Notes under the pieces: generated by a model
The model's database searches: none
What the model saw: the letters and a program-made list of their open reading frames with translations, nothing else
Told to the model about the DNA's origin: nothing
Shown: positions 3,922-44,811 of the stretch, piece by piece
Numbering within the stretch: position 1 is the stretch's first letter
Layout of the letters: each line of letters begins with the position of its first letter
Program-made: the position numbers and the translations under genes
Source of the DNA: a virus
Strand: one strand, 5' to 3'
Length of the DNA stretch: 64,000 nucleotides
Virus record (IMG/VR): IMGVR_UViG_3300031703_000001
Location: 43,391-107,390 of that record

Positions 3922-3962
3922 GGCTCTAAAAACTTCAAGATGATAAATAACATGATAACAAT

Positions 3963-17311: not shown

Positions 17312-17321
17312 AAAACAAAAC

Positions 17322-22000: not shown

Positions 22001-24951
22001 GCTAAATCTCTAGTTTGTAAATCAACACCACTAATATCATCAACCTGAGTCAATTCTTTAATTAAATCTGCTTCAGTGTTACCACTTCCCTCAACTCCAA
22101 ATTGTCTATTAGATTTGTTTCTAACAACTTCTTTTACATAATTGAAAATAGCATCATTAATAAGACCTTCTTTACCAGTATTTAATGCTTTAGTACCAAC
22201 TAATTTATTGGTTTCTAATTGTAGGTTTAACACCAATTGTTTTTGTGTAGCATTTAATTCTGAAGAATCTTCAATTGCAAATAAAGGAGCAAATGTAGTA
22301 AGGAATCTGTTGAAATTTAACACATAACTAATGTAAGCTGGGTCATCAATATTTTTTGGATCAGATACATATGTTGTAAATTCTCTAATTCTTTCTAATG
22401 ACTTACGTAATAAAGCAGTATAAACTCTAGACTGTTCAAGTGGGCCCTTATTCATACCACTTAAAATATAAGCTTGTTCATTAGCTCTCTCATCTAACCT
22501 TTGTTCATAGGTTTTGCTTGAGAATACCTTTTTCTTATTATTAGTATCCGCTTCCTGTGCTCTTCTTACAGCTTCACTGTAATTTTCTACAGCATCATAT
22601 ATAGTATTCTTTTCTGTAAGTACTTTGGCCTCTACAGTTTCAGGTATAACTTCATCTTTTAATAAAGGATCATTTTTACCTGAATAAAAAGACTCATCTT
22701 GTTCAGCTATTTTAGCATCTAACTTTTCCTTATTGGTATTTTTCTTTGTTGCTGGAATAAGCATGTCAACATAAACTCCGTTTTCAGATGGTTTGGTTTC
22801 TGATAACTCATTGTTATGGTGCATATTCTTTTCATTGGTATAACTACCTAAATACTTTTGGTCTTTACCTTTACCTTCTATATCTAAATGCATATGGAAT
22901 GTGGTAGCAGAGAAATCACCTTCATTAACAGTGTATCCCATATTCTCCAACATCCTTCTGTATAAGTTTACTTGAAGATTGTGTTGTCCTTTTGTACTCA
23001 GTGTGTCTACACCTTTTTGTTTTAACAAACTATCAGCAGGTAATGCCCAACCTTTATCTTCATAAAGTGTCAGACCTTGTAATCCTTTTTTTGTAGTTGT
23101 TGGAAATTTCTTAAGTATAGAATTCTTACTTGTTTTTAAATCAAGAATGCTAATTCTACCTTGCTTATCTACAATAAGTAAATCAGCTGTACCAGCAAGC
23201 TTTGTTGCTTCATCAAATAAAACAACTTGAGACATTGCTATACTACCATCAGGCATCAAAGTTCTTATAACTTCTCTCATAGCTCCAAACATTTCCAATG
23301 TCTGATCTCTTGTTAAAACTTTCATGTTGGGGATTGTATCCTCAAACAAATTCATCTTTTCTCTACCGTTGAGTTCAATTACTATGGCCTCAACAATAGT
23401 ATCAACATCATTTCCAATGTCTAAATTATATTGTACACTTTCTAGTTTTGTTTTATCTACAAGTTTACCTTCTTTAATTTTTTCAACCCATAATTTCTTC
23501 TCTGCAGCAAGTGCTTTTCCTTTCAGACCTTTTATTGCTTCATCTCTAGCCTGTATAGCTTCTCCTTCTTTATTGGTAAGTTTACCTTTAATTGCAGTAG
23601 TAACAGAATTGTAAACAGTATTGCTGTTTAGATCCATATACGTGTGCTCTTCAGCATTAAATGTCATTGCCACTTGTGAACCTTTATCTCCAGGCTTAAG
23701 CTTTTTTGAATTAATACTAACTGATAAACTATCTACAACTTTAGGGCTTCCTTCAACAATTCTGTACATTTCATTTAGCACTTCAGTTTGAATACCATTT
23801 GCAACTGACAACGTTCTCTTTTTTATTGCAGCTTTTTCAGGAGACAATGAATATCTTACCTTACCGCTTGCTTTTTTAATGAGAACAAATTGTAAATCTG
23901 CTGTATTTAAAAGTCTTGCAATATCACTAAATGTTGCATTGCTATTTATAGCTGTTACCTCTAAAGGATTACCAGCAATATACTCATGTAAATTGTTAAC
24001 TACATTTTGCAACCACTCTAAAGCATCTTGAATTAAATTTAAAAAAGTCTTTGTTGGTTTAACACCATTGTATTCTTTATTAAAATGTCTTGTTAATGCT
24101 TGTGTTACAATTTCTAAATCTCTATCTAGTTGACTAAAGTTTCTGTCTGCATTATATGCATCAGTAATCTGCTGAGCCATCTCCGGGAAGTTGACTTTAG
24201 CTTCTGCTAATAAATTATTAAATAAAGCTTGGTTATCAACCTTGATAGCATCAATGAATGGGTGCAACATTTCTTCAATTGCAGTTTCATTAGTTACTTT
24301 ACCTTGAATTAAATAAACAACACCATCAACATAAAATGAATTAACTTCTGAAAAGGGCCCTGAAGTCTTCTTCCATTTAGGCAATCCATCATGGATAGCT
24401 TTAGCTTCTTTAACAGATAACATTTTAACTTTAAGTTGGGGAAACATTTTCATTAAATGCATCACAACCTCTCTTGATCTTGGTGTATTCCAGGCTCTTG
24501 AAGATTCCATTATATCTTTAGGAGTAAATACATTATCTAAAACCTCTATCTTATATGACTTAGGTGTTCTTGTAATGTTCACACTCTCCAACGGTATATT
24601 GTTTGCCTTTAGATACAACAATACAGCCTTATGATTTGCCGCAAGAGCAGTTGCATCATAGACCATGCTATTATTATATGAATTATTGATAACATAATTA
24701 CCTTCATACAAATGGATTAACTTCTTTCTACGCAAGTTATGAATCACACTTTCACCAAACTGACGTTGCTTTAATGCAAAGGCAACCTTGTTAAGTGAAA
24801 CAAATCTTGCTGCTTCAACTGTTGTAGGGAACACGTCAGTGCTGTTGGCACTCTGCCAAGCATTGATAATGTTGTTAGTTTCTAATTCACTTGTGTAAAC
24901 CTCCTGTAGAGCTTTATACTCTGCTGTATTTTTATTGGGACATTTTGCCAT
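19021..24951 (-). CDS. Giant virion protein with PD-(D/E)XK nuclease-like domain, 1976 aa
   Basis: A very large, mostly helical, charged protein of the type found beside the virion RNA polymerase in crAss-like phages; probably packaged and injected. Inside it is a recognisable PD-(D/E)XK fold: a beta segment with N-A-E-E-H-T-Y and a following S-V-T; then G-T-A-D590; then I-L-D604-L-K606-T; then Q660-xxx-Y664. The nuclease core residues are all present, so activity is plausible. The C-terminal third holds long helices and one hydrophobic segment (G-E-I-A-I-I-I-A-V-S-G-I-G) before a run of five acidic residues, which might contact membrane. It starts 7 bases after the 4688-residue gene. Virion location and injection are inferred. 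Confidence 0.8.
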   Translation of the reverse strand: MAKCPNKNTAEYKALQEVYTSELETNNIINAWQSANSTDVFPTTVEAARFVSLNKVAFALKQRQFGESVIHNLRRKKLIHLYEGNYVINNSYNNSMVYDATALAANHKAVLLYLKANNIPLESVNITRTPKSYKIEVLDNVFTPKDIMESSRAWNTPRSREVVMHLMKMFPQLKVKMLSVKEAKAIHDGLPKWKKTSGPFSEVNSFYVDGVVYLIQGKVTNETAIEEMLHPFIDAIKVDNQALFNNLLAEAKVNFPEMAQQITDAYNADRNFSQLDRDLEIVTQALTRHFNKEYNGVKPTKTFLNLIQDALEWLQNVVNNLHEYIAGNPLEVTAINSNATFSDIARLLNTADLQFVLIKKASGKVRYSLSPEKAAIKKRTLSVANGIQTEVLNEMYRIVEGSPKVVDSLSVSINSKKLKPGDKGSQVAMTFNAEEHTYMDLNSNTVYNSVTTAIKGKLTNKEGEAIQARDEAIKGLKGKALAAEKKLWVEKIKEGKLVDKTKLESVQYNLDIGNDVDTIVEAIVIELNGREKMNLFEDTIPNMKVLTRDQTLEMFGAMREVIRTLMPDGSIAMSQVVLFDEATKLAGTADLLIVDKQGRISILDLKTSKNSILKKFPTTTKKGLQGLTLYEDKGWALPADSLLKQKGVDTLSTKGQHNLQVNLYRRMLENMGYTVNEGDFSATTFHMHLDIEGKGKDQKYLGSYTNEKNMHHNNELSETKPSENGVYVDMLIPATKKNTNKEKLDAKIAEQDESFYSGKNDPLLKDEVIPETVEAKVLTEKNTIYDAVENYSEAVRRAQEADTNNKKKVFSSKTYEQRLDERANEQAYILSGMNKGPLEQSRVYTALLRKSLERIREFTTYVSDPKNIDDPAYISYVLNFNRFLTTFAPLFAIEDSSELNATQKQLVLNLQLETNKLVGTKALNTGKEGLINDAIFNYVKEVVRNKSNRQFGVEGSGNTEADLIKELTQVDDISGVDLQTRDLATSTDTLLAIVDKIYKRQKQILLDKINYRESVIQKAGNKLLKLSPGTSKDQLYDFMHVFREGKRTGFYTKPIGQKYYTLRQELMDATTDDKGVPLQYREVGNFENATKEDIDYNIEVARKKRALTNFSQAERSDENGNRIDGKYHRYNQEFQDARKKFEFWQNNGTWGTWHKRSNVKGAKEVEYQKFQAKYYNSVDYNKAIWLNGEPTGQVLKDKTGGIFVKGEYIVANEFSLDENGLADVNGDMRSEQYKAIFDPTKTDALSIAQREFYELYVKYYEVELLGKLPASVKAQMSGRIPTVKGELLSDLKNKSNVFVRMYSNTVRSVSNLTKETAIQKNVLLDEQGNFVNSMPVFYTGSPRKEGALEEAEAKEKALKDKYKKGEINGVTYKKEAALLSGETAKLRSAPLVEELSSDLASSLIKFSAMAEHYEVMGEIEDTLTAITRVVENRAYEPSKASTRLVGRAANKVDQAIGGTVGFKKETSGDSNTVRRLRKYLSMVYYDNELITKGAVDKIADQLIGFSSLAYVAFNPFGNFNNYLMGKINNNIEMLGSRFYSKKSYFRAAKEYNAVALPGIIKRTGAGIQDIADIATLGLANIGKTDYDPNQANNKYEALTELFRMMDDSTDIRESQRGKDDKGVWERFKAWGYVLQDAAEYNVQTKVGIALIMDTLVLNKETGETMSLYDAFKFNGKTHEVELMDGFETVIDKNGKEIAQYNDDFRYKLRNNIREVNKQIHGNYAAEDRMIIQSHTIGNLAAQFKKWVAPAVRARFQNEYFDENLGWMEGRYKSAIAFAAFAKQQIVLGNRDFKKYGEGFLKEQEGYDGTGGLGDSRGQNRLFGVYRTMGEIAIIIAVSGIGTILDSVLAGDDDDSDTERRLKNLTKYQADRLYKELILFAPITPDSWVQIHQMIKSPVAASRMLGELGEAVNQSIWFAPAYLIKGEEGFYADSDYVYQNKPNKGKLKVAKAWEDALPILTSFKKWNNALIEREFEY

Positions 24952-24958: not shown

Positions 24959-27900
24959 TTATAATATACATTTAATTTCTTCCATGAATACTTCCTCTGA
25001 AGTCTTATCAGCAGTTGCTGGATACATTCCTTTCTTTGATTCCTTATTAAAGAATTCTAACATAAGACTATATGTTCTCATACCGTTCTTAGCAAATTTA
25101 GCCTTTTTTTCTGAATCTTGATCTATTACTTCATCCCAAAATATAATTAGTTGAGGATTTAACTCAGCCGCATTAGCATCAAACTCTAAATCCATCTGCA
25201 TTAATGAAGCAGCTAATTCAGAAGCATCACGTAAAGCATCCTCTGCAACATCACCTTCTTGAAATTCTTTTGGTGTTGCAACTACAGTTTCAGTTTCAGC
25301 TAATGTAACATCAACTTTGGTTCCTCCCTCTGATGGAGTACCATCTACAATATCAATATACTCCGCTCTAGCTAGATCTTGTTCTAATTGTGCTTCTTGT
25401 ACATCAAAAGATTGAGTTTGAAAGTTATCAGAAATTGGATCATTGTGTAATTCTTTTACTGATTTTCTTACCTCAACATATGTAGGTCTTTCACCAAACA
25501 TAAATCCAATACCATTTTGTTGATTGGATCCGTATGTTTCAATTTCATTATATACTCCTACTTCCTCAGTTGTTTTATTAAGTGAGTCAGAAAGCATTTG
25601 ACCAGAAATTTGTTCTAATGCTTTTATTGTTGCTCTAACTTCAATTGCAACTTTATCCGGAGTTAATAAATCTCTACCCTTATTCCAATATACATCTTTA
25701 TCTTTATTATTTATATGATCTTGTTCATGAAGAACCAAGAAAGTATTAGCAAGTTTATTAGTAGAAAGTATAGATTTAACTTTAGCTAAGCTATAACCTT
25801 GCTTATTAAGTTCCTTCAAGACTAAAGCTTTTTGTAAACTAGATACACCACCTTCTTTACCCTCCATGTAATCAAATAACTCTTGTGTGTTTGTTACTGG
25901 GTTTATTGTTATAGTAACTCCATCAGTAGAAGCAAATCTTTTAGAACCATCAGAGTTCTTTAATTTTTTATTTACTTTGTATGCTGGCATTCTATAAGCA
26001 CCTTTTACACTTTGAGATTCTGAAGTTCCAACATCATCACGCGCATATGTTTTATAAGAATCATAACCTTCAGTTGAAGTATTTTTAACTCTTATATAAC
26101 GTTTGCCTTTAGATGTAGGATTCTTTTCATATACTGCAGTTAATACACCACTTTTAACAGTAACACCTTTTGTTTTTTTACTAAAAGCACCGTCAGTTTG
26201 ATACAGGGTTGTTATTAAAGAGTTGTTTATATTAGATGCTAAATAACCATTAATAAATTCATCCTTCATTTCAGACATTGTTAAACCAAATGTAGACATC
26301 ATCTTTTCATCTGATGCATTACGTAAAGCTTCATTGGCTGTTGCAATATGATCTAAGTAAGCAGTCATTGTAAATGGACTAATTGCATCAAGCAATGTTC
26401 CATAAGCCATTTGTAAACCGTCTTTCACCATCATGTAATTGATGATTGATAATGCATCATCTTTAGTTTCTAATGTACCATATATTTTAGCAAAAGATGT
26501 TTGTAAATCTATTTTTTGTTGTCCATTTAAACTTCTAAATGTATTTGATTGCACAAGGTTTAAACCAGTGTTATTACTTTTTTCTGAAGCAGAATTAGCA
26601 ACAGCAAATACATCAAGGAAGAAATTATCTTTACCAACTTCAGTTTCTCTCAACCTTTCTATAAGATCAATAACTGAATTTTGATCAGATGGGTAAATGA
26701 AATTGTTATTTAAGTTAGCTATAGAACCCGTTGTTCCATTACCAACATTATGTTGATATGCTTTTATTGTTATATATGATAATAAATCTCTAGCTATTTT
26801 TGATTCAGTTTCTGATGTGAACTCTTGCTTGTTAACATCCATATTATCCATTACGTCAGCCATGATGCTTGTGAATTGTGGACTTGCACTCAAGAAAGTA
26901 GCAGGTAATAAATCATCATAAATTTGGTCAAATATCTCTAAGTATTTAGACTGCCAAGTATCACTCTTATAAATAGGTGCTAAATCCATTATTGCTTCCT
27001 TAGCAAATAATTGATCCATTTGCTCTCTCTTATAATTTACAGTTGTTATATCTTTCCCTAAACCATTTGTAAGATCAGAAATTGATCTCATGTTGGAAGT
27101 GAATTTCTTAACACGTGTTGCTTCAGAGAATGTTACCAATATAGATAATTGTTCTACATCACTGATTTCATTGTCTAATGATTTTCTCAATAGTGCATCA
27201 GTTACATCAACTAGTTCTATACTCTTAGCTTCTTTATCCTTGTTATCATTGTTTATCTTATCATTCAATTCAGCTACCTTATCTTTAAGTAAAGACTCAA
27301 CACCTGGATCCATTTTTTCTTTCTTATTTATAGCTTGCTCATAAATACTTTGAATTTCAGGATTGTTTATTAATAGTAAAGATGTTCTAATTGGAACACC
27401 CAATGCTGTTAAGTTTCCAACTAATGCTAATGCTTCTTTGTTTAATCCAAGTTTAGCAACCAATCTTTCTTTAGCATTATCTGTAGCCATTGTGATTAAA
27501 GAAGAAATAATATCTTGTTTTCTATCACCTAACTTACCATCTCCCAATTGTTCTCTAAGATGTTTGAAAGTATCAAACTTAATACCATTCAACATTATAG
27601 CTGGTCCGTCAGCTTTAAGTGTTATACCGTATTCAGTTAAAAGGCTCAATGCTTGATTTGGAGAAACTATTGCTCCAATTGCAGCACCTTTATTTGCTTT
27701 AAATGATTTTATCTTACCTAAGATATTATCAACATCAATGTTATCTTCTCTAGAACGTTCAACTAAATAATTTGATCTAGTTGCACTTTCTTCTGAACTA
27801 TCACTAAACTCTGCCCATAAACTATATAGTATATCTAAACTTGCTGGAGTGTATGATATAGCTGGTTTTCCATCTATTTCATTAGTTACACTATCATTCC

Positions 27901-30900
27901 CCATTAATGCATACTTTAAATCTAAAAGTTCATTGTTAAGAGGTGCTTCATATGGTTCACCATTCTTAGCTTTATATTCTGAATACTGTTTTACAGAAAT
28001 AGGTAGACCTAACATCTCTAATGCAATGATTGTATTGGCCCATTTTGAATATTCTTTGTCAGTCATTGAATCTGCAAAAATAAGTGCAGCAGGATTATCT
28101 TCTCTGATTTCTTGCTTATCTTCTTTATAAAGCATTAGTGCTTCATTATAAGTAGACCCTTTTTTATTAACCTTAGATTGTACATAGTTTAAATAATCAG
28201 CATGTGCATCTTTAGCATTAGTTGCTTTTCCATATTCAACAAACTTCTCATCTTTCATATACCACTCTTTAATTTGAGTGTACACTTTATCAATATCAAA
28301 ATCTGCTCCTGATACCTCAACAAGCTCTTGTGCAAACATTCCTACTGATCCATACACTGCAGGTAAAAAGTCTACCATTTTTGCATTGATAGTAGAATGA
28401 TTATCCTGAGATGGAATACGTATAGCAAACATCTTAGCAATTACTGCTGGGATTGGTTCATTAGTATTTTCAATATACTTCATTACTTCAGCATAATGAG
28501 CAGGCATTAACATTTCTGTATGTTTTTCACCTGTTTCTTTACCTTTAGAATCAAACTCTTTAACGTTTGTTCTTAAACGGTCTAATATAACAACACCCTC
28601 TTTTGGAACAGTAATACCTTTCCAGCTTTTATCTCCATTACCATCTTGATCCGTATGTTCTACTATACTATTACTAGTATGAGAATTCTTACCTGCTTTA
28701 TTTTCCCAGTTCTTTTCTCTTATTACTTCTGATCTTTCAGGAATACCATTTTGATCAAAACTAAATACTCTTCTGTATACAGAGTTTCCAAAATCAGAAA
28801 CTAAAGCAAGAGCATGTCCTGGTAATTTTTCTGATAAAGTACCTTTACTTAAATAACCTAAGAATAAACTTTCAAAATTGTTTATTGTAATTGGATTATT
28901 CAAATCAAATTGTTGCTCACCATTCTTAGTACTAAAGAATTCTAGTAGTTGACTACTTGATTGTGATGCCTTCAAACCATTAACAGCATATTTTAAGAAT
29001 GCCATTAAGTCCGGTGTAAGCTTCCCAGTTTTCTTAGATATTTCTAATTCACTCATTGATGAATCAAAATTGAAAATAAGATTTCTTTTATTTTTGTATT
29101 TTAATTCTACTCTTCTTGATGTAGCTAAGTTATATGCTTTTCTAATTTGACCAACAGTCATACCTAACGCTGCTACAAATTCTGAATCATTTTGTTCAGA
29201 TGTAACAATATTTTTAATCTGTGTAGGATCAACAATCTCCATCTTGTTAGATGGATTAGCTACCTGAAGTCCAAGGTTTCTTGCACTTAATTCTGTAGCT
29301 TCTTGAATGAATCCACTTTCATTGTCAAATTCTGATAAAGAAGTAACATCTTGTTTAAGCATTTTGTATGCAGTCAATGGAGCAGCTATTGCTATCACAT
29401 CAGATTCTGCTTCTTGCTTTTCAAGCTTCATTCTTAAATTGTGTAATTCAACTCTATTCTCTTTAGCAACCCAAGTAACTTTACCATCTTCTGATACAAC
29501 TCTATTAGAAGTAAGCTGAGGTATTAATGGGAAAGCAGACATTTTTATGAATGTTCTACCATCTGCGTATACTAACTTTCTTGAGTTAACCATTGCACCA
29601 TTAGCAACAAACCCATTAGATCCAAATATCTCTTCATCAGTGATTTCTTCTCCTGCTTCCAATCTAGTTATTAGCTCAGCTTGCATTGGTGTTAATGTAC
29701 CAAAACCAAATTCACTATATCTTAATCCTTTTAATGTGTAGTATAATATTGCATCAGCCTTATCAATATCTTGCCCTGTTAAAGAAGATGTACCTATTGG
29801 TTCTTCAAAAACATTTGCTAGTATTTTATCCGTTGTATGCATTACTCCTAACTTAGGAGCAGTTACTGCACTATAAGCACTTATTGTAGCAGCATTTTGA
29901 GCCTTTGCTCTTTTAATTGCGTCTACACCATTCTTTAATGTAATTGCTTGATCACCTAAAAGAATCTCATTTATGGATTTAGTATTGACCCAATCATTAA
30001 AAAAGATTTGTTTAAGATTGTGAGTTTTATCTGTAGACAAATTAAGCAGTCTTGAAGACTCAGCAAACAATCCTTTGTTATCTAATCCAAGTTTGATACT
30101 ATTACTAATATCTGTATCAATATTTAAAGCTGTTAATTCATTAGAGAATGCTTCAAATTGTGCATCCAGTATTTCATTAAGTTGCTTTTTAAATTGGTCA
30201 ACTGTTAAATTGATTTCAGTTAATGCATCTTTGAATGATGTATCATCTCTATTAGCAATTTCTTCCAATTGTTTTTTAACATCTTCATTTAATAATAATG
30301 ATGAGTTATGTAATTTATATGCTCTACCTAATATAACATCACCGGTTTCTTTATCAAATGTCTCTTCATTAAAACCAAGTACATTTCTTTTAGTTTTAGT
30401 TTCTTCATTAACCTCTCTTCTGATACGGTTGAATTCAGTCTCTATAGATGTTGTGAATATATTAAGAGTTTCATCAGTTAATACAGACTCACCAGAATTT
30501 CCTTTTAAGAATTTAACTGCTTGAATAACAGGCATGTATGCCATATCACCTGTATTAGATGATTCTAATACTCTCAATAAACTTGGTGTCAATGCAACTT
30601 TAACTTTTTTACCAGTTGATTCATCTGTAACTTCTACAAAGTCAACTCTCCCGGTCTTAGTATTAACAAGTGAAGCATATGAGTTGATTAAACTTAATGC
30701 AAATTCTTGAGGACTAAAGTTTCCATATGTTGATCTAGAAGAGATACCTGATATATTATCATTAATATCAGCTTCTGTCTCATTGATCTGACCAACAGCA
30801 GCACCAGCAACTCTTAATATCTTCTGTCTATTTTCAACAGACATTTGTATAAAAGCAGCATTATTTAAAAGATGATTGTTTTTCAAGTATGGATATTTCT

Positions 30901-33900
30901 CTTTAAGAATTTCCAATTGAGCCACATCATTTAATTTTTGAATTTGTTTCAAGTGGTATGTTGGTTTCTGGTGTGCATAAACCAAGTTACCTTCAGCATT
31001 TTTAAATACTGATAAACCAATAGACTCATCAAAAGGTGCATTCTGAACTGCAAGCTTTTTAAGTCTAGAGTTCATACCTGTTTCACCTTCACTGAATATA
31101 TCACTTTGAGTTTGAATCAACTCTTTCATGTATCCAATATCATCAGATGTAATTGCAGCTTCTTGAGCATTTGCATTTAACAATGCTTGATGGTGCATGT
31201 TCAACTTCTTCTTGTTCTTAACTATACTGTATTGTATAAATTGAGGACTAAGTTTAACACCTGCGTATTCAAAAATCTTTTCAGCATAATTCTTAGAATC
31301 TGCTGCAAGTTTTGCATTGGAATAATATTCTGTCTCAGATTTTAAAGCTGCTTGGAATTTTTCTAATAGTTTTTCCAACTTAACTCTAGTTGTTGCATCT
31401 GATTTAAGTTTCTTAGATGCTTGTGTCCACGCTTGTGACCACATATCCATTTGAGAATTAACATCATCTCTTTGCGCGGCAGAATACCAAAGTACATTAC
31501 CAGCATTATCTCTTTGTGTAAATAAATAATCAACTCTAAAGTTTTCAAATGCTTTTGTAAAAGCCTGAAGTAATTGAGGATTCTTTAAGTCTAAAGGAAG
31601 CGCTGTATTTAATAGTAAAGATTTTGTAGTAATACCTATATCAGCTAAAAGCCTAGATACTACTGCACCTGTCTCTGCATTTTGCAAACCAAAGAAGTAC
31701 ATGTTCTGCAACATTGTTCTTGGATTCTCAATATTCTTAACAGATTTTAATAATCCATTGTACACTTCAGAAAAGTTTACTGGAACAATTAAACGTTCAC
31801 CTTCAGTCAATTCAGTATTACCAAAGAAATCAGTCTCTGCAATTGTTGTAGTTGCAATATAAGCTCTAATTTCTTTTGGAGTTGAATTAACCCCTCCAAT
31901 CATAGATGCATCTGTACTCCATGAATCAATACCTCTTAAACCTACAGTATCTTCAAAAAATTCTGCGTTGTATTCTTCTTCTGCAACTTGACTATCAATC
32001 ACATTCAAGTATGCATATACCTGAGTCTTTATTATATCAGAGTATTCATCAATAGCTAAAGACGCTTGTTCTAATAATTCAATTTGTTTAGGAGACTTAT
32101 TTAGATTATTATCTTCAGTAGGATCATATAGTACATAGAAATCATCCATTATACCTTCCAACATTTCTGATCTTAAAATTGTAGTATCCGTATTTTTTGA
32201 TACTCTTTGTAAGTACATAGCGGCCATACTTGCAATCATTGGATTAGCAATGTCACTATCTAGATATAAAGAACCTTCTCTTAATTTTTTTACCGTCTTG
32301 TCTTGTGCATCTTTTACTTCAGTAACTTCTTGTATTACTTCATAAGGTATTAATGCATTAGCTTCAAGTGTAATTCCAAATTGACTTGTAAATTGATTTG
32401 ATACTACCTCAGCATTTTTGTATTTACCATTGTTTATATTTTCAAATAAATCTTGTAATACTACATCAGTAGAACTGAATACTGATTTAATCCAATCTAG
32501 AATTTTTGTAAATAAAGATTTTACTTCAGAAGATGTATTACTATTCTTTGGATTAGTTTTGAATTTCTCAAACTCATCAGCCAAATATTCTTCATAGTAT
32601 TCTTGTTCCAATCTAGCTTTACTCATATTAGTATAAGTATCAGCAGAACGTCTAAACAATTCTAATTCAGTATTGAAGTTTTTACCTTCAGCTCTTAACT
32701 TAGCTCTTGCTTCTTTTCTAGCAATTGACAAGTACTTTTTAATTTCCACATCATTTAATAGCATTCTAAACACACTGTGAAATGCTTCATGATATCTGAA
32801 AGGAGATTTGGCACCAGTATATAATGTACCCTTAACTGTTTCACCACCTGCAATAGCTTTTAAATCAATTACAAATGCACCAACTCTTACCCCACCAGCC
32901 TTTAAGTTATTACCTAACAAGGCAATATCCTGAATACTAATAGATTGAGGTAAATTATCATTAGCCCAATTCATAAATACATTAATATCTTCAACAGCCT
33001 CTGATGACATTGAAGCTAAAATTTTATTAGCTGCACCATGAAGATCATTTCTCTTCTTTAATAATGCTTGATATTCATCACTTGCAGTTAAAACAGCACG
33101 TTTCTCTTTACCTTTCTTTCCTTCTTGTAACTTTGCTTTTAAAACTTTAATTTCTTCTTTAACAACTGCTAAAGGAGAATCAGTAACAGATAATTCAGGT
33201 GCTGATTCCACAATTAATTCCGGACCTTTTGGAATAGGGTTTCCTTCAGCATCTTTGAAAGTTTCACTTGGAGTGATTACACCGGTTGTAGTTGTAGATG
33301 CATCCCCTGCTGCTTGTATACTTGATGAATCAGCTGACAATGTTATTGTACCTGGATGAGCAACTTCATATATTACATTTGTTTCAGTGTCTTCCAACAT
33401 TGTTTCTATTGGAGCATCCTTACTAAATGATCTTCTAAAGTTACCTGCTTTTAATTCTACACCTGCTTCTTGTGCTTCAACTGATCCATTAAATAAATCA
33501 ATTAAAACTTTCATTTTAGCATCAACAGATAAATCTTTGTTAAGGATTGTTGCTTTATCTAATCTTATAGTAGCAAGTCTTTCCTTACCCTTACTTAATT
33601 GTAATTCAATTTTACCCCAAGCACTTACTTGCATTGAGATATCATGTCCTGCTATTGTGCTAATATAAAATTTATTATCAGCCATCTCTGCACTAAACTC
33701 ACGTAGAGCTATAGTTGCTTTAGCATTTTCATCAATATTTGCTTTATTATCTTTTTGATCTCCAAATATTTCTTTCTTGTTTGCAATTACCTCTTGTGCT
33801 TGAGTAATGAAAGATACAAATATAGAATCAAGTTCAGACTTAACTAAAACTTTTGCTTTTAGATTCACCAAACTATACGTCCCATTAGGTAATAAAACAA

Positions 33901-36900
33901 TTGCTTTATAAGCATCATTTCTTTTTACACCAGTCTTAGGGTCAATTGTACCATTTCTAAGTTCACCACCTGTTTGCTCATCATATAAACCTTGCTTGGT
34001 TAAATCAGCTAAAACTTTTTCAATTAAAGCTTCCCTCTTATCACCTTCAAGATTTGTAACAGCAGTTTGAGTACGTACACCATTCAAGGTATACATTTTA
34101 AATATTAAATAGTTTCCGTTGTTATCAACGTTCTTGTGTTCTAAATCATTCAACGCTCTAGTAGACTCATTATCCCAACCGGTTAAACCAAGTTGCATAT
34201 CAAATGAAATACCATTTGTTAATTCAGATATAGGTATTGTAACTTTTTCACCATCTGCTACATCAGCCATTAAAGCATCAAGAGTATTTACTAAAACTTT
34301 ATTTGCAGCAAAGTTATGCTGTGCTTCAGCTAATAATTCAGCTGGAGTTTGCAATCCTTTAAGGTGCTCTGGAGTTCTAAATAAATTATCCATTTGCTCT
34401 TCAGTAAAGTTTGCAGGATTAATTTCTTTACCATTAACATCTTGAAATGCAAATCCATCTACATTAATGAATGCAAATATACCATTGCTATTTTTAGCAG
34501 CAGGTATTTTTCTTGCAGCCAATATGTCATCTATCTTTTTCTGTACTGATGGATTACCAGCTTTAATTCCAATCTGATATTTAGAACGTATTGTCTTTAT
34601 ATATGGATTAGATTCTTCCTGCTTATACTTATAATTACCAGTATCCTTATTAGGATTTTGATCAAGCATTATAATGAGTTCTAAGCTACTTGCTTCTTCA
34701 GGAGTTAATACTGAAAGGATTGCATTATATCTATCCTGACCTTCTTGATATGAGTTATCAGAGTCAAAGTTTTGAAGAGGGTAAGGAGTAATTGGTTCAG
34801 ATACATTTAATCTAGAAACATTAGGTCCTAAAGTCTTCAAACCAACTTGCATATCTTGCAATGTATAGAATCCTTCAAAACCACCTTCAGGTACAGATAC
34901 AATAAAAGCACCTCTTTCTTTATAGTTCAAGCCCATTTTATCTGAAGGAATCAAAGCTAAACTTTTACCCTCATTGATACTCTTTGCTTTACTTAATACT
35001 ACATACTCTACACTAGGTTTACCTTCAGATGCTACACTATATACAAGTGAACCATGCTTCAAAGTTAATTCTTCAAATACAAATGATTCATTTCCACCAA
35101 AGCCTTCTTCCATTTTTACAAACAATTCTCTTGCTTCTTGAATGGTATCAAATAAATTAAATTTATCAGTGAACTTCTCTAGTATTTCAAGATCAACATC
35201 TTCTTTAGTTGTATTGTCTTTTATAATATACTTTGTTACACTACCGCCTTCTTCTCCAGCATTCACAGTTTCTTCAGAAACTATTGAGAATGTCTTACCT
35301 GCTTTGATAAGCGTTAGAGTAGAGCTTCCTTGAAATGGAGCATCTTCCTCTCCCATATTTTCAACTTGCCCTGTAACATCAGTTATATCAACATTAAGTT
35401 TTTCTAATATTTCATTAACCATATCATTCTCCATACCTTCTGTAGATAATAACCAATTGATAAATTTATTATCATTTAGTATTTCTTCTTCAGTAAGAGG
35501 TTTGTTTGGGTTAATTAATTTATCATTAGCCACCCAGATATTTCTAAGTGCATTGTATGCATTTCTAAAGTTTTCTGCATCATCAGTTTTAAGCCACTCA
35601 ACAAATTTCAAAGGAACGTTTCCTAAGTTGGCTTGATTGGATGCATATTTTTCATATACTTTAGTTAGTAACTCATCATACTTCTTAGTTCTAGATGGCA
35701 TAAGATTTTCATCTACACCCTCCATACCTTTAAGTATATCAGATACTTCATTTCTATTCTTTTGACTTACCTCACTTTCAGTTTCTGCTTTTGCTGCGTC
35801 AGCTTTATCAGCTTGAATTCCAGCATATGTTGCTTTCAAATTTTCAATAACCTCATGTAATGCAGGCATACTTTGAGCAGTAACTTCACCTATTTCAGCA
35901 ATATAAAATCTAGTAAGGAATCTAATATCCCCGGTTGCTAAAAAGAATTTTGCTTGATCAGGATCAGGAATAACTTCATAACCTTCTATGTTAGCTATTT
36001 GATTTAACAACTCATTCATTTCTTGAGTCTTCAAATAGTTTTCAATTACTTCCTTATAGTCCTTTTCAATATTATTGAAAGCTGCATCATGTATTTTATA
36101 TTGTCTTTGTAATACCTCATCAAATTTTTCAGGATTAGCTAAAAGCTCAATTGTTTTATCATACACTTTTGCTCTACCCTTTAGAGCTTTATAATCAACC
36201 ATCTTTTTTAACACATCATTGATCACTTCTTCATCTACAAAAGAATCATTTGAATTAGCTAAGAATTTAACATAGTCTTTAAATACAGCTTTAAGAGCAC
36301 CTATCTTTCTTCTATCATATATACCTTTATCAGATAGGTTCTTAGGATCAGTTAATACTTTTTGAACTGCTTTTAATTTAGCAATTTTTTCTTCTTTCTC
36401 AGCAATTACTTTTTTATTAACCTCTTTATCAAAAGCTAATGTTTTTACTTCAGAAGCTAATATTTCCAATTCATTGATAACACTATCTGGATCTAACAAA
36501 ACAGTTAAATCACTAGCAGCCATCTTTTCAAACATAGGCTCAGAAGCTAATGCTTGGTAGATACCATTTGATCTTTCAACAGCTCTATCAAAACCATCTT
36601 TAGTAAACATGTAAAGATATCTTACATGTTCATATGAATATTGTTTTATAGCTTCTGCTTGATATTCTCTTGATCCTTTTGTATACTGTGAAGCATCATA
36701 AGGATTTTCAAACTTATCTTTAGTTTTATTAAACACATCTTCAGTCTTACTGATTTGTGTAATCATACTTTGGAAACGTTCTCTTAACTTTCCACTTTTA
36801 ATATCTTTCTTATCAGAAGGAAATGCAGTAGCTAAATCCTCATCAGAAAGTTTCAAGTAATCACCAAGTTGACTTTCAAAAGCTCTTGCACCACCCGTAC

Positions 36901-39025
36901 TTAATACTGTAAATATTTGTTGGAATTTTGCAAAGTCAGTTGCATCAATAAATCCAAATTGATCTCCAGCATAAGCAGATTTTGCTTTTTCACCTGCTGC
37001 TTCTTTTTGTGCTAAGAAGTTTAATTTATGAGGATCAAACATTGAGTTTGGATCTTCAGCTTGTTTGTTCCATGTTTCATTATAAGCTAATACAACTTTG
37101 GCAACTAAATCATCTCTATTAGTTTTGTATTCAGCCCATGCTTCATTCTGCTTCTTAGAACCAACACCAACACCTGCTTCATTTAAACCAAACTTATATA
37201 CAGAAGGTATTCCCTGAAAGAATAGCTTTTGTGGACCGGATACTACACCACCCATTAAAAATCCAGACATGAATGTCTCAAATCCTTGAGCAGTAAACTG
37301 TGAACTAACAGCAGAAGATATTGAAGCTCTTTGCAATTCTATACCTCCTGATAATGGATCTTTGAATACAGCATCATAGTAATGATTTGTTCCATGTGAT
37401 ATAGCCTCTTGAGATATCTCTTGAATTCCTTCTGCAAAATTTGCTGAAAAGAATCTTGCACTTGCACCAAAAGCTGCTTTTGCATTACCCTTTACACCCA
37501 AACTCTTCATTCTTTTAAGACCACCTTTTATACCAGAACCTACATCTTCAAATACATCTCTGGCTAATTTACCATCTCCACCAAGAACTTTACTCCCTCT
37601 TACTATTCTTCTACCTATACCTTTAATATTATCGTTAGTCATTCTTGCAAATGACTTACTAAACCCACCAAATGCATTACCTAATACAATTTGATTACTT
37701 AAGAAAATCAAAGGTGCATTCATTGATAATGTACTGAAAGCTGCCCTACTTGCATTCTGTTCTATCTCTGCCATTTGTTCAGCAGTAACATTACCTCCGT
37801 TGTTTTTAGCAACTTGTGTTCTTATGTTTTCTGAAACTCTAGAATTATAAACCATTCCTGATTCAAGCTTAGACTCAGCTAATGCATAATTTAATGATCT
37901 AACATCTTTATAAAATCCACCAAACTTCTTAGCTCCTTTAGCCATATTACTCATATTCTGAACACCGTTCTGTGTAGATTTAAGAGCTTTAATTGCAGCA
38001 GTAGTTTCTGGAAAAAATATCTTACCAACAAATTTCTTACCGCTGTTAGCTGCATTAAAGAAATCTTTTGCTTTATCAACATTATTCATTTGCTTAAAAG
38101 CATTTCTTGTGTAGTTGGCCATTTTACCTATTCTACCCACAGCAAATGTATTTGCTACTGCATTACCAACTTTAGCAACATTTGTTGCAGTCTTAGCAGC
38201 TACAAGTGGAGTAGCACCTCCAAATGTCACAGCTTCTAAACCAAGTAATGCAACCTCTTCAAGAGCAACACTTGTAATAACACCAACTGTATATGCTGAG
38301 TTTAACAAAAGATTATTTGCAAATTGTGTAGCACCACCTCTGGTAGAACTACCAATTCTCATGGCATCCTCCATTTCAGTAGCTGAAGCCAAATCAGGAC
38401 TCATTGCATTACCTGTAAATAAATCACCTATTGATCTATAACCTCCCATGAAACCTGTACCTAATAAACCAGTAAATTGACCCCACATTCTTGTACGGTC
38501 ATCTCCTGCAGTAGAGTTATCATTATAAAATTGGTCACTATTTGCATATGGTGAGAACCCTAGATCAGCATATTTAGGATGCTCATAAAAATGCTCAAAG
38601 TTTGATTTTCTAATGTTTGAAACTACAGGTGCAATTTTAACATCAGCACCTTTCTTTGGCACATTGTATTGTTGTTTATTCTGATTTAGCGTTTGTCTTA
38701 AAGCATTAACGGCTGCATCTGGAGTTAATCCTTCCTCCATAGGAGTTTGTTGTGCCAAAGGATCAAATGTTGATGCTGCAATTGTTGGTCTAGCCACACC
38801 TAGATTAGCCATAGCAGTAGGACTATACTTATCCACATCTGCTTTAAAAGCATCAAGATGCTGCATTTGGGCAACATCTGCAGTATCTATATAAGCATCA
38901 TATTCAGGAGTGTTAAACATTTCCTCAATAGGTATGTAGGGTAAATCCTTAGCAATAACTGCAGTGGGCACCTCACTATTTTTAATAGTTTGATCTAAAC
39001 TTGTATTTTGTGCTTGCTCTTCCAT
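24959..39025 (-). CDS. Giant virion RNA polymerase / zincin polyprotein, 4688 aa
   Basis: One uninterrupted 14-kb gene. The best evidence for function is D3575-F-D-I-D3579 preceded about 40 residues earlier by R3536-I-P-S, the arrangement of the catalytic double-psi barrel (R-x-P-T...D-F-D-G-D) of multisubunit RNA polymerase beta' and of crAss-like single-chain polymerases. A second conserved stretch with K3261 and D-P-T-Q-I about 310 residues upstream fits the other barrel. Other visible parts: a disordered N-terminus, Ala/Val-rich hydrophobic helices around residues 228-295, a zincin-type H2079-E-A-F-H2083 with E/D-rich E-E-Y-L-A-D-E-F 60 residues later, and a second H-E-Q-D-H at 4433-4437. 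It is roughly twice the length of the studied crAss-like virion polymerase, so fusion with neighbouring cargo proteins is likely. Self-processing by the zincin is inference. Confidence 0.85.
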   Translation of the reverse strand: MEEQAQNTSLDQTIKNSEVPTAVIAKDLPYIPIEEMFNTPEYDAYIDTADVAQMQHLDAFKADVDKYSPTAMANLGVARPTIAASTFDPLAQQTPMEEGLTPDAAVNALRQTLNQNKQQYNVPKKGADVKIAPVVSNIRKSNFEHFYEHPKYADLGFSPYANSDQFYNDNSTAGDDRTRMWGQFTGLLGTGFMGGYRSIGDLFTGNAMSPDLASATEMEDAMRIGSSTRGGATQFANNLLLNSAYTVGVITSVALEEVALLGLEAVTFGGATPLVAAKTATNVAKVGNAVANTFAVGRIGKMANYTRNAFKQMNNVDKAKDFFNAANSGKKFVGKIFFPETTAAIKALKSTQNGVQNMSNMAKGAKKFGGFYKDVRSLNYALAESKLESGMVYNSRVSENIRTQVAKNNGGNVTAEQMAEIEQNASRAAFSTLSMNAPLIFLSNQIVLGNAFGGFSKSFARMTNDNIKGIGRRIVRGSKVLGGDGKLARDVFEDVGSGIKGGLKRMKSLGVKGNAKAAFGASARFFSANFAEGIQEISQEAISHGTNHYYDAVFKDPLSGGIELQRASISSAVSSQFTAQGFETFMSGFLMGGVVSGPQKLFFQGIPSVYKFGLNEAGVGVGSKKQNEAWAEYKTNRDDLVAKVVLAYNETWNKQAEDPNSMFDPHKLNFLAQKEAAGEKAKSAYAGDQFGFIDATDFAKFQQIFTVLSTGGARAFESQLGDYLKLSDEDLATAFPSDKKDIKSGKLRERFQSMITQISKTEDVFNKTKDKFENPYDASQYTKGSREYQAEAIKQYSYEHVRYLYMFTKDGFDRAVERSNGIYQALASEPMFEKMAASDLTVLLDPDSVINELEILASEVKTLAFDKEVNKKVIAEKEEKIAKLKAVQKVLTDPKNLSDKGIYDRRKIGALKAVFKDYVKFLANSNDSFVDEEVINDVLKKMVDYKALKGRAKVYDKTIELLANPEKFDEVLQRQYKIHDAAFNNIEKDYKEVIENYLKTQEMNELLNQIANIEGYEVIPDPDQAKFFLATGDIRFLTRFYIAEIGEVTAQSMPALHEVIENLKATYAGIQADKADAAKAETESEVSQKNRNEVSDILKGMEGVDENLMPSRTKKYDELLTKVYEKYASNQANLGNVPLKFVEWLKTDDAENFRNAYNALRNIWVANDKLINPNKPLTEEEILNDNKFINWLLSTEGMENDMVNEILEKLNVDITDVTGQVENMGEEDAPFQGSSTLTLIKAGKTFSIVSEETVNAGEEGGSVTKYIIKDNTTKEDVDLEILEKFTDKFNLFDTIQEARELFVKMEEGFGGNESFVFEELTLKHGSLVYSVASEGKPSVEYVVLSKAKSINEGKSLALIPSDKMGLNYKERGAFIVSVPEGGFEGFYTLQDMQVGLKTLGPNVSRLNVSEPITPYPLQNFDSDNSYQEGQDRYNAILSVLTPEEASSLELIIMLDQNPNKDTGNYKYKQEESNPYIKTIRSKYQIGIKAGNPSVQKKIDDILAARKIPAAKNSNGIFAFINVDGFAFQDVNGKEINPANFTEEQMDNLFRTPEHLKGLQTPAELLAEAQHNFAANKVLVNTLDALMADVADGEKVTIPISELTNGISFDMQLGLTGWDNESTRALNDLEHKNVDNNGNYLIFKMYTLNGVRTQTAVTNLEGDKREALIEKVLADLTKQGLYDEQTGGELRNGTIDPKTGVKRNDAYKAIVLLPNGTYSLVNLKAKVLVKSELDSIFVSFITQAQEVIANKKEIFGDQKDNKANIDENAKATIALREFSAEMADNKFYISTIAGHDISMQVSAWGKIELQLSKGKERLATIRLDKATILNKDLSVDAKMKVLIDLFNGSVEAQEAGVELKAGNFRRSFSKDAPIETMLEDTETNVIYEVAHPGTITLSADSSSIQAAGDASTTTTGVITPSETFKDAEGNPIPKGPELIVESAPELSVTDSPLAVVKEEIKVLKAKLQEGKKGKEKRAVLTASDEYQALLKKRNDLHGAANKILASMSSEAVEDINVFMNWANDNLPQSISIQDIALLGNNLKAGGVRVGAFVIDLKAIAGGETVKGTLYTGAKSPFRYHEAFHSVFRMLLNDVEIKKYLSIARKEARAKLRAEGKNFNTELELFRRSADTYTNMSKARLEQEYYEEYLADEFEKFKTNPKNSNTSSEVKSLFTKILDWIKSVFSSTDVVLQDLFENINNGKYKNAEVVSNQFTSQFGITLEANALIPYEVIQEVTEVKDAQDKTVKKLREGSLYLDSDIANPMIASMAAMYLQRVSKNTDTTILRSEMLEGIMDDFYVLYDPTEDNNLNKSPKQIELLEQASLAIDEYSDIIKTQVYAYLNVIDSQVAEEEYNAEFFEDTVGLRGIDSWSTDASMIGGVNSTPKEIRAYIATTTIAETDFFGNTELTEGERLIVPVNFSEVYNGLLKSVKNIENPRTMLQNMYFFGLQNAETGAVVSRLLADIGITTKSLLLNTALPLDLKNPQLLQAFTKAFENFRVDYLFTQRDNAGNVLWYSAAQRDDVNSQMDMWSQAWTQASKKLKSDATTRVKLEKLLEKFQAALKSETEYYSNAKLAADSKNYAEKIFEYAGVKLSPQFIQYSIVKNKKKLNMHHQALLNANAQEAAITSDDIGYMKELIQTQSDIFSEGETGMNSRLKKLAVQNAPFDESIGLSVFKNAEGNLVYAHQKPTYHLKQIQKLNDVAQLEILKEKYPYLKNNHLLNNAAFIQMSVENRQKILRVAGAAVGQINETEADINDNISGISSRSTYGNFSPQEFALSLINSYASLVNTKTGRVDFVEVTDESTGKKVKVALTPSLLRVLESSNTGDMAYMPVIQAVKFLKGNSGESVLTDETLNIFTTSIETEFNRIRREVNEETKTKRNVLGFNEETFDKETGDVILGRAYKLHNSSLLLNEDVKKQLEEIANRDDTSFKDALTEINLTVDQFKKQLNEILDAQFEAFSNELTALNIDTDISNSIKLGLDNKGLFAESSRLLNLSTDKTHNLKQIFFNDWVNTKSINEILLGDQAITLKNGVDAIKRAKAQNAATISAYSAVTAPKLGVMHTTDKILANVFEEPIGTSSLTGQDIDKADAILYYTLKGLRYSEFGFGTLTPMQAELITRLEAGEEITDEEIFGSNGFVANGAMVNSRKLVYADGRTFIKMSAFPLIPQLTSNRVVSEDGKVTWVAKENRVELHNLRMKLEKQEAESDVIAIAAPLTAYKMLKQDVTSLSEFDNESGFIQEATELSARNLGLQVANPSNKMEIVDPTQIKNIVTSEQNDSEFVAALGMTVGQIRKAYNLATSRRVELKYKNKRNLIFNFDSSMSELEISKKTGKLTPDLMAFLKYAVNGLKASQSSSQLLEFFSTKNGEQQFDLNNPITINNFESLFLGYLSKGTLSEKLPGHALALVSDFGNSVYRRVFSFDQNGIPERSEVIREKNWENKAGKNSHTSNSIVEHTDQDGNGDKSWKGITVPKEGVVILDRLRTNVKEFDSKGKETGEKHTEMLMPAHYAEVMKYIENTNEPIPAVIAKMFAIRIPSQDNHSTINAKMVDFLPAVYGSVGMFAQELVEVSGADFDIDKVYTQIKEWYMKDEKFVEYGKATNAKDAHADYLNYVQSKVNKKGSTYNEALMLYKEDKQEIREDNPAALIFADSMTDKEYSKWANTIIALEMLGLPISVKQYSEYKAKNGEPYEAPLNNELLDLKYALMGNDSVTNEIDGKPAISYTPASLDILYSLWAEFSDSSEESATRSNYLVERSREDNIDVDNILGKIKSFKANKGAAIGAIVSPNQALSLLTEYGITLKADGPAIMLNGIKFDTFKHLREQLGDGKLGDRKQDIISSLITMATDNAKERLVAKLGLNKEALALVGNLTALGVPIRTSLLLINNPEIQSIYEQAINKKEKMDPGVESLLKDKVAELNDKINNDNKDKEAKSIELVDVTDALLRKSLDNEISDVEQLSILVTFSEATRVKKFTSNMRSISDLTNGLGKDITTVNYKREQMDQLFAKEAIMDLAPIYKSDTWQSKYLEIFDQIYDDLLPATFLSASPQFTSIMADVMDNMDVNKQEFTSETESKIARDLLSYITIKAYQHNVGNGTTGSIANLNNNFIYPSDQNSVIDLIERLRETEVGKDNFFLDVFAVANSASEKSNNTGLNLVQSNTFRSLNGQQKIDLQTSFAKIYGTLETKDDALSIINYMMVKDGLQMAYGTLLDAISPFTMTAYLDHIATANEALRNASDEKMMSTFGLTMSEMKDEFINGYLASNINNSLITTLYQTDGAFSKKTKGVTVKSGVLTAVYEKNPTSKGKRYIRVKNTSTEGYDSYKTYARDDVGTSESQSVKGAYRMPAYKVNKKLKNSDGSKRFASTDGVTITINPVTNTQELFDYMEGKEGGVSSLQKALVLKELNKQGYSLAKVKSILSTNKLANTFLVLHEQDHINNKDKDVYWNKGRDLLTPDKVAIEVRATIKALEQISGQMLSDSLNKTTEEVGVYNEIETYGSNQQNGIGFMFGERPTYVEVRKSVKELHNDPISDNFQTQSFDVQEAQLEQDLARAEYIDIVDGTPSEGGTKVDVTLAETETVVATPKEFQEGDVAEDALRDASELAASLMQMDLEFDANAAELNPQLIIFWDEVIDQDSEKKAKFAKNGMRTYSLMLEFFNKESKKGMYPATADKTSEEVFMEEIKCIL

Positions 39026-42000: not shown

Positions 42001-42269
42001 TGAGCATTTTGAGCTAAAGATAAATCCATACCTGAGATCTTCTCTAAAGAAGGTGCTAAGTTATTGACATATTGCTCTCTTTGTTCATTGGTATCTGTTC
42101 TTGATAAGTCCGCGAATACAACCTTGTTGTAAACGTCATTGGTTGCCTGCCAATTTGTATTATATTTATCTTGCCTAACATCAAGTACAGCAGACAAAAA
42201 CTTATAGTCTGGTGTAAACGGTTTGATATCCGGTAAATATGTTTCTGATCCTGGTACGTATGTTGCCAT
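39057..42269 (-). CDS. crAss-like internal virion (cargo-type) protein, 1070 aa
   Basis: The N-terminus (G-S-E-T-Y-L-P-D-I-K-P-F-T-P-D-Y, then R-Q-x-x-Y-N-T-N) resembles a protein that recurs next to giant virion proteins in crAss-like and related Bacteroidota phages, as far as I recall. The rest is polar, partly helical (Q-K-K-K-D-D-I-E-L-A-E-L-K around 405-430) and ends in a Thr/Tyr/Gly-rich region and a basic tail. No enzyme motif is visible. It lies 31 bases upstream of the polymerase gene in the same transcript direction. A role as packaged internal protein is inferred from position and size. Confidence 0.65.
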   Translation of the reverse strand: MATYVPGSETYLPDIKPFTPDYKFLSAVLDVRQDKYNTNWQATNDVYNKVVFADLSRTDTNEQREQYVNNLAPSLEKISGMDLSLAQNAQSAKAVFAPFFEDKLIVKDMVKTANYRKEMSHAQRLLASPDSAVNGQYWRDGVTSLQYRMDDFIGMDADSAIAAPLYKYVPKADMFKLSEEILGGMKPPLKIKIDHFGVNPDGSANTDWIVTQQNGEPVVGPALQIIRKRLSSDGRVLQAYQTQAYVAGRDFAAAGMQGGDFTTVAEGQEAWAQTTIGNIEANNKSRLAKGEKKLIIQKETNVRWENYKKETGVIPDSDEDKLMKEQLSAYEATKLAMENQMEVAKVIATPSTDLESTLNRAYQLLMMTNMDADMVAAAQSYSMRDMESTMRVNPYAKQQKQFKMDMAKISANATNRRSLAFDLQAQKKKDDIELAELKGETMTAARAMMNALDANNHSIGGAGTNQFATDEDGNIDPNTDVPVLSENQYADRNNKLQSYKIESILTALRVQNPRGNNLGGGEFTDTWTIKAEEGDFTGTLSEIRSKLSEKKEGTEGYVHAKGINSIFNDHKSIITARDPETGDLIMKSTNPNLVSHPDFVSLVNDMIGIGVNQDIADRTYEATLKVYEDASKTTEALVRSSDKHVDAMMKKGMPGLMMDLPSGGQRVMDKDEYYAAALAKLKAKQMTNHDQVWADDTGTSNEDYMHWEDVPVGSTYTVRTMDGNVTKQRTEKKWVLDERAFRDETAQVYKALYEKLNGGLTGAITEGEKGIPTATFDGMLNGKSGSLQDLESGVTYQGSFDPKVPEGQGAVIMMQYANQMAALNAKGITPTMFTGTYAEGSDMSENPKVAQFMNETMQDTRSMLGNPKSTNSLPGSPRGTWTYSPVLGDPEDGTKTTAGYTWTPTEEYVNSKMKGGKGDANYGGYPFTKAELMKGVTILFDQSEDVNPRSINTGTNWGSPIVSKIMSSPKGVYTNKENNKAGDGIGSYSYSKISNNEYVMNYQYRTYQPSVDGKGGGYTTSAWQPTTYRIKGNDFSELNNSENAIKEFFRQKALASDLAKSKDKAVNGKK

Positions 42270-42328
42270 AATGTAAAATTACTAAAATTTATTAAGTTTA
42301 ACTAGTTATATGTTAACACTTTTGAAGT

Positions 42329-44809: not shown

Positions 44810-44811
44810 GA

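What the first reader, a model, noticed from the sequence alone, without database searches (positions are those of the whole stretch)
24959..39025. 4688-residue fusion of a virion RNA polymerase with zincin-like and other domains
R-I-P-S and D-F-D-I-D at 3536-3579 plus a second barrel-like stretch near 3261 point to a single-chain RNA polymerase in one of the largest phage proteins I know of. An H-E-A-F-H at 2079 with downstream acidic residues, and an H-E-Q-D-H at 4433, suggest protease domains in the same chain. Such a polyprotein could be matured by its own protease, and the studied crAss-like polymerase is roughly half this length.
Basis: partly seen in the sequence, partly recalled or inferred. 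Interest (0 to 1): 0.8.

Follow-up and report, generated by a model that had tools for sequence, protein, structure and literature searches.

The report
Giant crAss-type virion RNA polymerase fusion
A 4,688-residue protein of an uncultured bacterial virus is a divergent copy of the RNA polymerase that crAss-like phages carry in their particles, joined in one chain to the metalloprotease-like protein that sits beside it in related phages; it is a well-formed member of a known kind, and the idea that it cuts itself up is untested.

Summary
[quoted passage not shown] profile search E 2.9e-13). Residues 1 to about 2226 match the RNAP-associated 'A' protein of other crAss-like phages; the only invariant residues of its zincin-like region are H2079, E2080, H2083, E2145 and E2146. 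The next ORF (1,976 aa) is the block's third protein, 'C'. So the modules are A|B|C in phi14:2, A|BC in p-crAssphage and AB|C here. Of 60 complete relatives 58 show the same fusion, and gut phage cr4_1 (Suoliviridae) already has it (4,491 aa, annotated 'hypothetical'). HEQDH marks a clade-specific mobile domain. Packaging in the virion is inferred from relatives. Self-cleavage is not supported: the metal site is kept where A is already separate, no junction motif stands out, and N4's comparable polymerase is packaged uncut. New member of a known kind; modest interest.

The parts
24959..39025 (-). ORF of 4688 aa: A module fused to B (RNA polymerase) module
   Evidence: AB fusion in 58 of 60 complete relatives
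32348..39025 (-). A module, residues 1 to about 2226: RNAP-associated protein, homolog of crAss001 gp47 / p-crAssphage gp45
   Evidence: hhalign to the crAss001-type A family: 434-1028 (E 2e-6) and 2018-2204 (E 6e-12); to p-crAssphage gp45 only weakly, HExxH on HExxH (E ~0.009)
38198..38254 (-). hydrophobic stretch, residues 258-276, possible membrane helix
   Evidence: Kyte-Doolittle 1.58, borderline; in 56 of 59 complete relatives the N-terminal hydrophobic maximum starts at residue 225-275
32348..33025 (-). zincin-like domain, residues 2001-2226, HEAFH at 2079-2083 and EE at 2145-2146
   Evidence: the only invariant columns of a 38-sequence alignment that includes gut crAss-like phages are H, E, H, E, E
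26090..30979 (-). B module, residues 2683-4312: two-barrel RNA polymerase
   Evidence: hhalign to phi14:2 gp66 2843-4062 <-> 686-1835, E 5e-19, and to crAss001-type RNAP 2683-4312 <-> 598-2268, E 2e-20; AF2 model of 2840-4035 matches 6vr4, E 9.6e-28
28409..28420 (-). RIPS motif, residues 3536-3539
   Evidence: R-I-P invariant in 55 relatives
28289..28303 (-). DFDID catalytic metal motif, residues 3575-3579
   Evidence: invariant; aligned by hhalign to the DxDxD of crAss001-type, cr4_1 and p-crAssphage RNAPs
29243..29245 (-).
   Evidence: invariant in the clade, not aligned to lysine outside it
25475..25915 (-). C-terminal accessory HExxH domain, residues 4371-4517, HEQDH at 4433
   Evidence: present only in near relatives; homologous to the domain around HExxH 877 of the cr116_1 RNAP-block protein (tblastn E 3e-6)
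19021..24951 (-). C module, separate ORF of 1976 aa: RNAP-associated protein, homolog of phi14:2 gp65, crAss001 gp49 and the C-terminal part of p-crAssphage gp44
   Evidence: hhalign E 4e-8, 3e-27 and 7e-21 respectively
22945..23424 (-). PD-(D/E)XK nuclease-like domain in the C ORF (residues 510-669)
   Evidence: Pfam PDDEXK_1 E 2.6e-4, half a bit below the curated cut-off; matches crAss001-type A protein 1698-1835, E 4e-7
19399..19476 (-). predicted membrane helix near the C-terminus of the C ORF (residues 1826-1851)
   Evidence: Kyte-Doolittle 2.2; at a similar distance from the end in most C homologs of other families
50988..57137 (-). 2049-aa virion structural protein in the position of the crAss muzzle (P22 gp10-like) protein
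   Evidence: phrog_37948 E 6e-40 and phrog_15100 E 2e-28; synteny with phi14:2

Best explanation
[quoted passage not shown] It combines, in one chain, the RNAP-associated A protein (N-terminal, with a possible membrane helix near residue 260 and a zincin-like site at 2079-2146) and the catalytic two-barrel polymerase B (about 2683-4312), followed by a clade-specific accessory HExxH domain. The third component, C (PD-(D/E)XK-like domain and a C-terminal membrane helix), is the next gene. Most likely mechanism: the chain is made late, packaged, threaded through the tail with C and the other cargo proteins; its A part stays at the inner-membrane entry site, and its B part refolds in the cytoplasm and transcribes the early genes as the DNA enters. 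The zincin-like site acts on something other than the A/B joint, or acts once inside the cell. Shown here by computation: homology and fold of B, homology of A and C, metal-site conservation, constancy of the fusion. Inferred: packaging, ejection, membrane tether, protease activity and its target.
For: B: AF2 model of 2840-4035 (pLDDT 82, pTM 0.80); Foldseek PDB top 6vr4 E 9.6e-28, TM 0.66 by query length, nothing else below 1e-3, then QDE-1 and P23-45 gp96; the A3 profile hits only 6vr4 in the PDB, E 2.9e-13; hhalign to phi14:2 gp66 E 5e-19; tblastn to annotated crAss RNAP catalytic subunits. A: hhalign to crAss001-type A family E 6e-12 and 2e-6; metal-site residues the only invariants across families. 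C. Same AB fusion in 58 of 60 complete relatives and in Suoliviridae cr4_1 (collinear 2067-4081 <-> 1972-3956, E 9e-24). crAss-like TerL, portal and MCP in the same 107-kb record and phi14:2-like gene order. Precedent: crAss001 virions contain gp47, gp49 and gp50, the three block proteins (PMC10172136); phi14:2 A, B and C were annotated from virion proteomics; N4 vRNAP's N-terminal domain inserts in membranes (PMC12633501).
Against: No virion proteomics for this phage. The similarity to p-crAssphage gp45 is weak (E ~0.009), and to phi14:2 A none was found. The membrane helix near 260 is borderline. The zincin fold was not confirmed: model pLDDT 56, no significant PDB or Pfam match. I could not open the AF2 coordinates, so barrel geometry rests on the Foldseek match.
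Confidence: 0.82

Rival explanations
1. Self-maturing polyprotein: the zincin-like domain at 2079 cuts the chain, before or during packaging, into A and B (and perhaps frees the C-terminal domain).
For: Invariant HExxH + E site near the A/B joint. In other crAss-like phages A and B are separate proteins. P1 DdrB is processed before packaging, and Iyer et al. predict autoprocessing by such domains in polyvalent proteins (PMC5512222).
Against: In Intestiviridae and Steigviridae the same HExxH site is kept at the C-terminal end of an A protein that is already separate from B, so cutting A from B cannot be its job there. No invariant motif stands out at 2181-2360. N4 vRNAP, with an HExxH domain, is packaged uncut (PMC5512222). 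No cleavage data exist here.
Confidence: 0.2
2. The zincin-like and HEQDH domains are injected effectors that cleave host proteins after entry (polyvalent-protein model), with fusion to the polymerase serving only delivery.
For: The HEQDH domain is mobile: C-terminal here, internal in cr116_1, and absent from most relatives, as expected of a conflict effector. One relative (L012 = L063) has a wholly different N-terminal region before the same B and C. A cr116_1 RNAP-like protein is named ART-PolyVal-like in UniProt.
Against: The HEAFH site is kept throughout the clade and across crAss families, which suits a core function better than an arms-race effector. No target is known.
Confidence: 0.3
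3. The fusion is a gene-calling or assembly artefact; A and B are really separate genes.
For: One relative's ORF is split (L064: 3090 and 1672 aa).
Against: 58 of 60 complete ORFs are fused, most from independent contigs; L064 is 99.98% identical to intact L065 and differs by a 35-nt insertion at the break; cr4_1 shows the same fusion.
Confidence: 0.01

Closest known systems
Suoliviridae phage cr4_1 (Buorbuivirus hominis) gp26, 4491 aa
   Same: Same AB fusion, HEAFH at 2002 and DFDID at 3433, collinear over 2067-4081 (E 9e-24), followed by a separate C protein
   Different: About 22% identity; cr4_1 has 38 in-frame stop codons (recoded genome), this phage none; no HEQDH domain; annotated only as hypothetical
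Cellulophaga phage phi14:2 gp66 virion RNA polymerase, 2180 aa (PDB 6vr4)
   Same: Fold and catalytic motif of the polymerase; A, B, C gene order
   Different: Three separate genes; its A protein has no HExxH; about 15% identity
p-crAssphage (Carjivirus communis) gp45 + gp44
   Same: Same modules: gp45 'RNAP associated protein fused to zincin protease' and gp44 'RNAP catalytic subunit fused to unknown RNAP subunit'
   Different: The fusion falls at the other joint: A | BC there, AB | C here
crAss001 gp47, gp50, gp49
   Same: A, B and C homologs, all detected in virions (PMC10172136)
   Different: Three genes, A on the opposite strand
Coliphage N4 gp50 vRNAP and Thermus phage P23-45 gp96
   Same: Giant virion RNAPs that also carry an HExxH / metallopeptidase domain and a membrane part (PMC12633501, PMC5512222, PMC10770324)
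   Different: N4's polymerase is T7-like; P23-45's is another two-barrel branch, fused to the tape measure; different domain orders

Membership tests
crAss-like virion RNA polymerase (6vr4 family) | Overall fold with two double-psi barrels in one chain | tested here: met
   AF2 model matches 6vr4 at E 9.6e-28, TM 0.66 by query length; barrel geometry not inspected directly
crAss-like virion RNA polymerase (6vr4 family) | DxDxD catalytic motif aligned to the known one | tested here: met
   DFDID 3575-3579, invariant, aligned in hhalign to the DxDxD of other crAss-like RNAPs
crAss-like virion RNA polymerase (6vr4 family) | Present in the virion and transcribes early genes | not testable with these tools
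   Shown for phi14:2 and crAss001 homologs in the literature only
Zincin-like metallopeptidase | HExxH plus a downstream glutamate ligand, conserved | tested here: met
   H2079, E2080, H2083, E2145, E2146 invariant across families
Zincin-like metallopeptidase | Zincin fold | tested here: inconclusive
   AF2 pLDDT 56; no significant PDB, Pfam or Foldseek match
Zincin-like metallopeptidase | Zn-dependent proteolysis | not testable with these tools
   Needs biochemistry
Order Crassvirales | crAss-type TerL, portal, MCP and tail proteins with phi14:2-like order | tested here: met
   phrog_6681, phrog_6547, phrog_11589, phrog_9863, phrog_34036, phrog_37948; tblastn
Order Crassvirales | IHF gene in the structural block | tested here: inconclusive
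   The HU-HIG model found nothing, but also nothing in p-crAssphage, crAss001 or phi14:2, so the test is blind
Intestiviridae, Steigviridae or Suoliviridae | Placement inside the family by TerL | tested here: not met
   The clade is a separate, fully supported group on a long stem, outside all three
Polyvalent proteins | Multidomain injected protein with MPTase and other enzymatic domains | tested here: inconclusive
   The architecture fits (two HExxH domains and a polymerase); injection not tested

The most novel reading that the evidence does not exclude
The zincin-like domain is a working part of giant virion polymerases in general: after injection it cuts the polymerase loose from its membrane-bound part, and unrelated polymerases (crAss two-barrel, P23-45 two-barrel, N4 T7-like) have acquired such a domain independently for that step.
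Probability: 0.15. Interest if true: 0.75.

Novelty: new member of a known kind. Interest (0 to 1): 0.36.

Why it matters
It shows that the crAss transcription block is one set of three modules whose gene borders move (A|B|C, A|BC, AB|C). That makes the role of A easier to test, because in this lineage A cannot act apart from the polymerase unless it is cut. It also adds a case to the recurring but unexplained link between giant virion polymerases and HExxH domains (crAss, N4, P23-45), and gives dozens of diverse sequences from which to choose a well-behaved protein for biochemistry.

Tried and rejected
Pfam and PHROGs scans of the whole 4688-aa protein gave nothing significant, nor did a single-sequence PDB search. 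The weak Lactamase_B_6 and DUF1451 hits were rejected as below cut-off. The zincin model was too poor for a fold search, and its matches were ignored. The Pro-Pro endopeptidase match to the first zincin profile (E 0.12) vanished with the deeper one and is not used. Internal start for B: no methionine between 2150 and 2700 is conserved in more than two thirds of relatives. The hhalign residue print for phi14:2 gp66 failed to parse, so its residue pairs are not quoted. PF18291 as an IHF test failed its own positive controls. No paper naming zincin together with crAss-like phages was found in the library; the two key papers (Yutin 2018, Drobysheva 2021) are not held, so whether they describe the Suoliviridae fusion could not be checked.

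Full report
Observation. The ORF runs on the minus strand from 39025 to 24959 and encodes 4688 residues without interruption (the plus strand is full of stops). The four motifs are at the stated residues. The window is bases 43391-107390 of a 107,390-base virus record.

Is it more than chance? Composition predicts 0.027 HExxH and 1.17 DxDxD; 2 and 1 are seen. Conservation is the better test. Two scans of IMG/VR gave 24 and 78 relatives (overlapping). In 55 aligned relatives R-I-P, Q, D, H, S of RIPSQDNHS and all five of DFDID are invariant. K3261 is invariant too, but hhalign pairs it with A or V in Steigviridae and Suoliviridae, whereas K3150, K3161 and K3221 pair with lysines.

The polymerase. 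Profile-profile comparison aligns 2843-4062 with 686-1835 of phi14:2 gp66 (E 5e-19) and 2683-4312 with 598-2268 of crAss001-type RNAP (E 2e-20). A profile of 2840-4035 finds a single PDB sequence, 6vr4, at E 2.9e-13. AF2 gave pLDDT 82 and pTM 0.80. Foldseek's best PDB match is 6vr4 (E 9.6e-28, TM 0.66 by query length); QDE-1 (7.6e-3) and P23-45 gp96 (3.4e-2) follow far behind. Among viral models the best is Virus NIOZ-UU157 at 40% identity, then crAss-like phages.

The N-terminal half. Residues 434-1028 and 2018-2204 align with the A protein of crAss001-type phages (E 2e-6 and 6e-12); the match to p-crAssphage gp45 is weak (E ~0.009) but puts HExxH on HExxH. In an alignment of 38 sequences, six of them from Intestiviridae and Steigviridae, the only invariant columns are H2079, E2080, H2083, E2145 and E2146. 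This is the pattern of a metal site, but neither the fold nor activity is shown. A borderline hydrophobic stretch lies near residue 260, and in 56 of 59 complete relatives the N-terminal maximum falls at 225-275; N4 vRNAP has putative membrane helices at 224-278 (PMC12633501), which may be coincidence.

The neighbours. The next ORF, 19021-24951 (1976 aa), matches phi14:2 gp65, crAss001 gp49 and the C-terminal part of p-crAssphage gp44. It carries a PD-(D/E)XK-like domain that in crAss001-type phages lies in A instead, and a membrane helix at a similar distance from the C-terminus in most families. Upstream lie three unassigned ORFs (39057-47028), a LysM protein and the 2049-aa muzzle-like protein, then tail genes. 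TerL, portal and MCP in the rest of the record are crAss-like.

Architecture. phi14:2 has A|B|C (1797, 2180, 1421 aa), p-crAssphage A|BC (1957, 4070 aa), crAss001 three genes with A inverted, and this phage AB|C. Of 60 complete relatives 58 are fused in the same way, 4462-5366 aa. One exception, L064, is probably an assembly error (99.98% identical to intact L065 apart from a 35-nt insertion). The other, L012 = L063, has the same B and C behind an unrelated N-terminal region. The gut phage cr4_1 (Suoliviridae) has the same fusion, collinear over 2067-4081 (E 9e-24), and cr50_1 has a 4774-aa version annotated as DNA helicase, whose N-terminal 1716 residues I did not examine. So the AB fusion is not new, only unremarked in the annotation.

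Placement. In a TerL tree of 26 rows the clade is fully supported and lies outside Intesti-, Steigi- and Suoliviridae, on a long stem whose position is uncertain. Its closest annotated portal is that of the cyanobacterial phage Lbo-JY46 (31%), in which no such RNAP was detected.

The second HExxH. HEQDH occurs only in near relatives and is homologous to the domain around HExxH 877 of a cr116_1 protein, internal there and C-terminal here (tblastn E 3e-6). It is a mobile accessory domain.

Mechanism. Best supported is a packaged and ejected polymerase with a membrane-side A part, by analogy with crAss001 (PMC10172136) and N4 (PMC12633501). Self-maturation has a precedent in P1 DdrB, but N4 vRNAP is packaged uncut although it carries such a domain (PMC5512222), and here the site is kept in phages where A is already free. 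Shown: homology, fold, conservation, constancy of the fusion. Inferred: packaging, ejection, tethering, proteolysis and its target.

Known versus new. A review calls crAss RNAPs of up to ~6000 aa a hallmark of the group (PMC10136315), and fusions of virion RNAPs to large proteins in crAss-like and N4-related phages are noted in PMC10770324. This is a new member of that kind, in an unnamed environmental lineage.

Noticed in passing
L122 and L125 (Spirosoma oryzae DSM 28354, Spirosoma terrae): crAss-type RNAP, TerL and portal lie together on contigs of 229 and 574 kb in genome assemblies of cultured bacteria, which suggests integrated crAss-like proviruses. Ends and integrase were not looked for.
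   Followed up: partly
19399-19476, and C homologs of other families: A membrane-helix-like segment about 125-150 residues from the C-terminus of the RNAP-associated C protein recurs in most crAss families, which suggests C is a membrane component of the ejection machinery.
   Followed up: partly
22945-23424 and crAss001-type A protein 1698-1835: A PD-(D/E)XK-like domain sits in C in this phage and in A in Steigviridae, so domains move between the block's proteins.
   Followed up: partly
L012 / L063 (contig 3300024221_000011): Same B and C as the clade, but the N-terminal 1722 residues and the 1056-aa gene before it are unrelated to the usual A and contain another HExxH (HEYQH).
   Followed up: partly
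L037 (cr116_1 B protein, residue 635) and L039 (phi14:2 gp65, residue 245): A third, weakly similar HExxH domain type may be shared by these two block proteins (E 5e-4 in a tiny database).
   Followed up: no
NC_055868 (cr50_1) 65825-80149, L161: A 4774-aa protein annotated 'DNA helicase' contains the crAss RNAP DFDID motif and matches the polymerase profile; the annotation looks wrong.
   Followed up: partly
8435-10066 and 16331-18947: The phage encodes a GroEL-like chaperonin (by its sequence) and both subunits of a ribonucleotide reductase.
   Followed up: no
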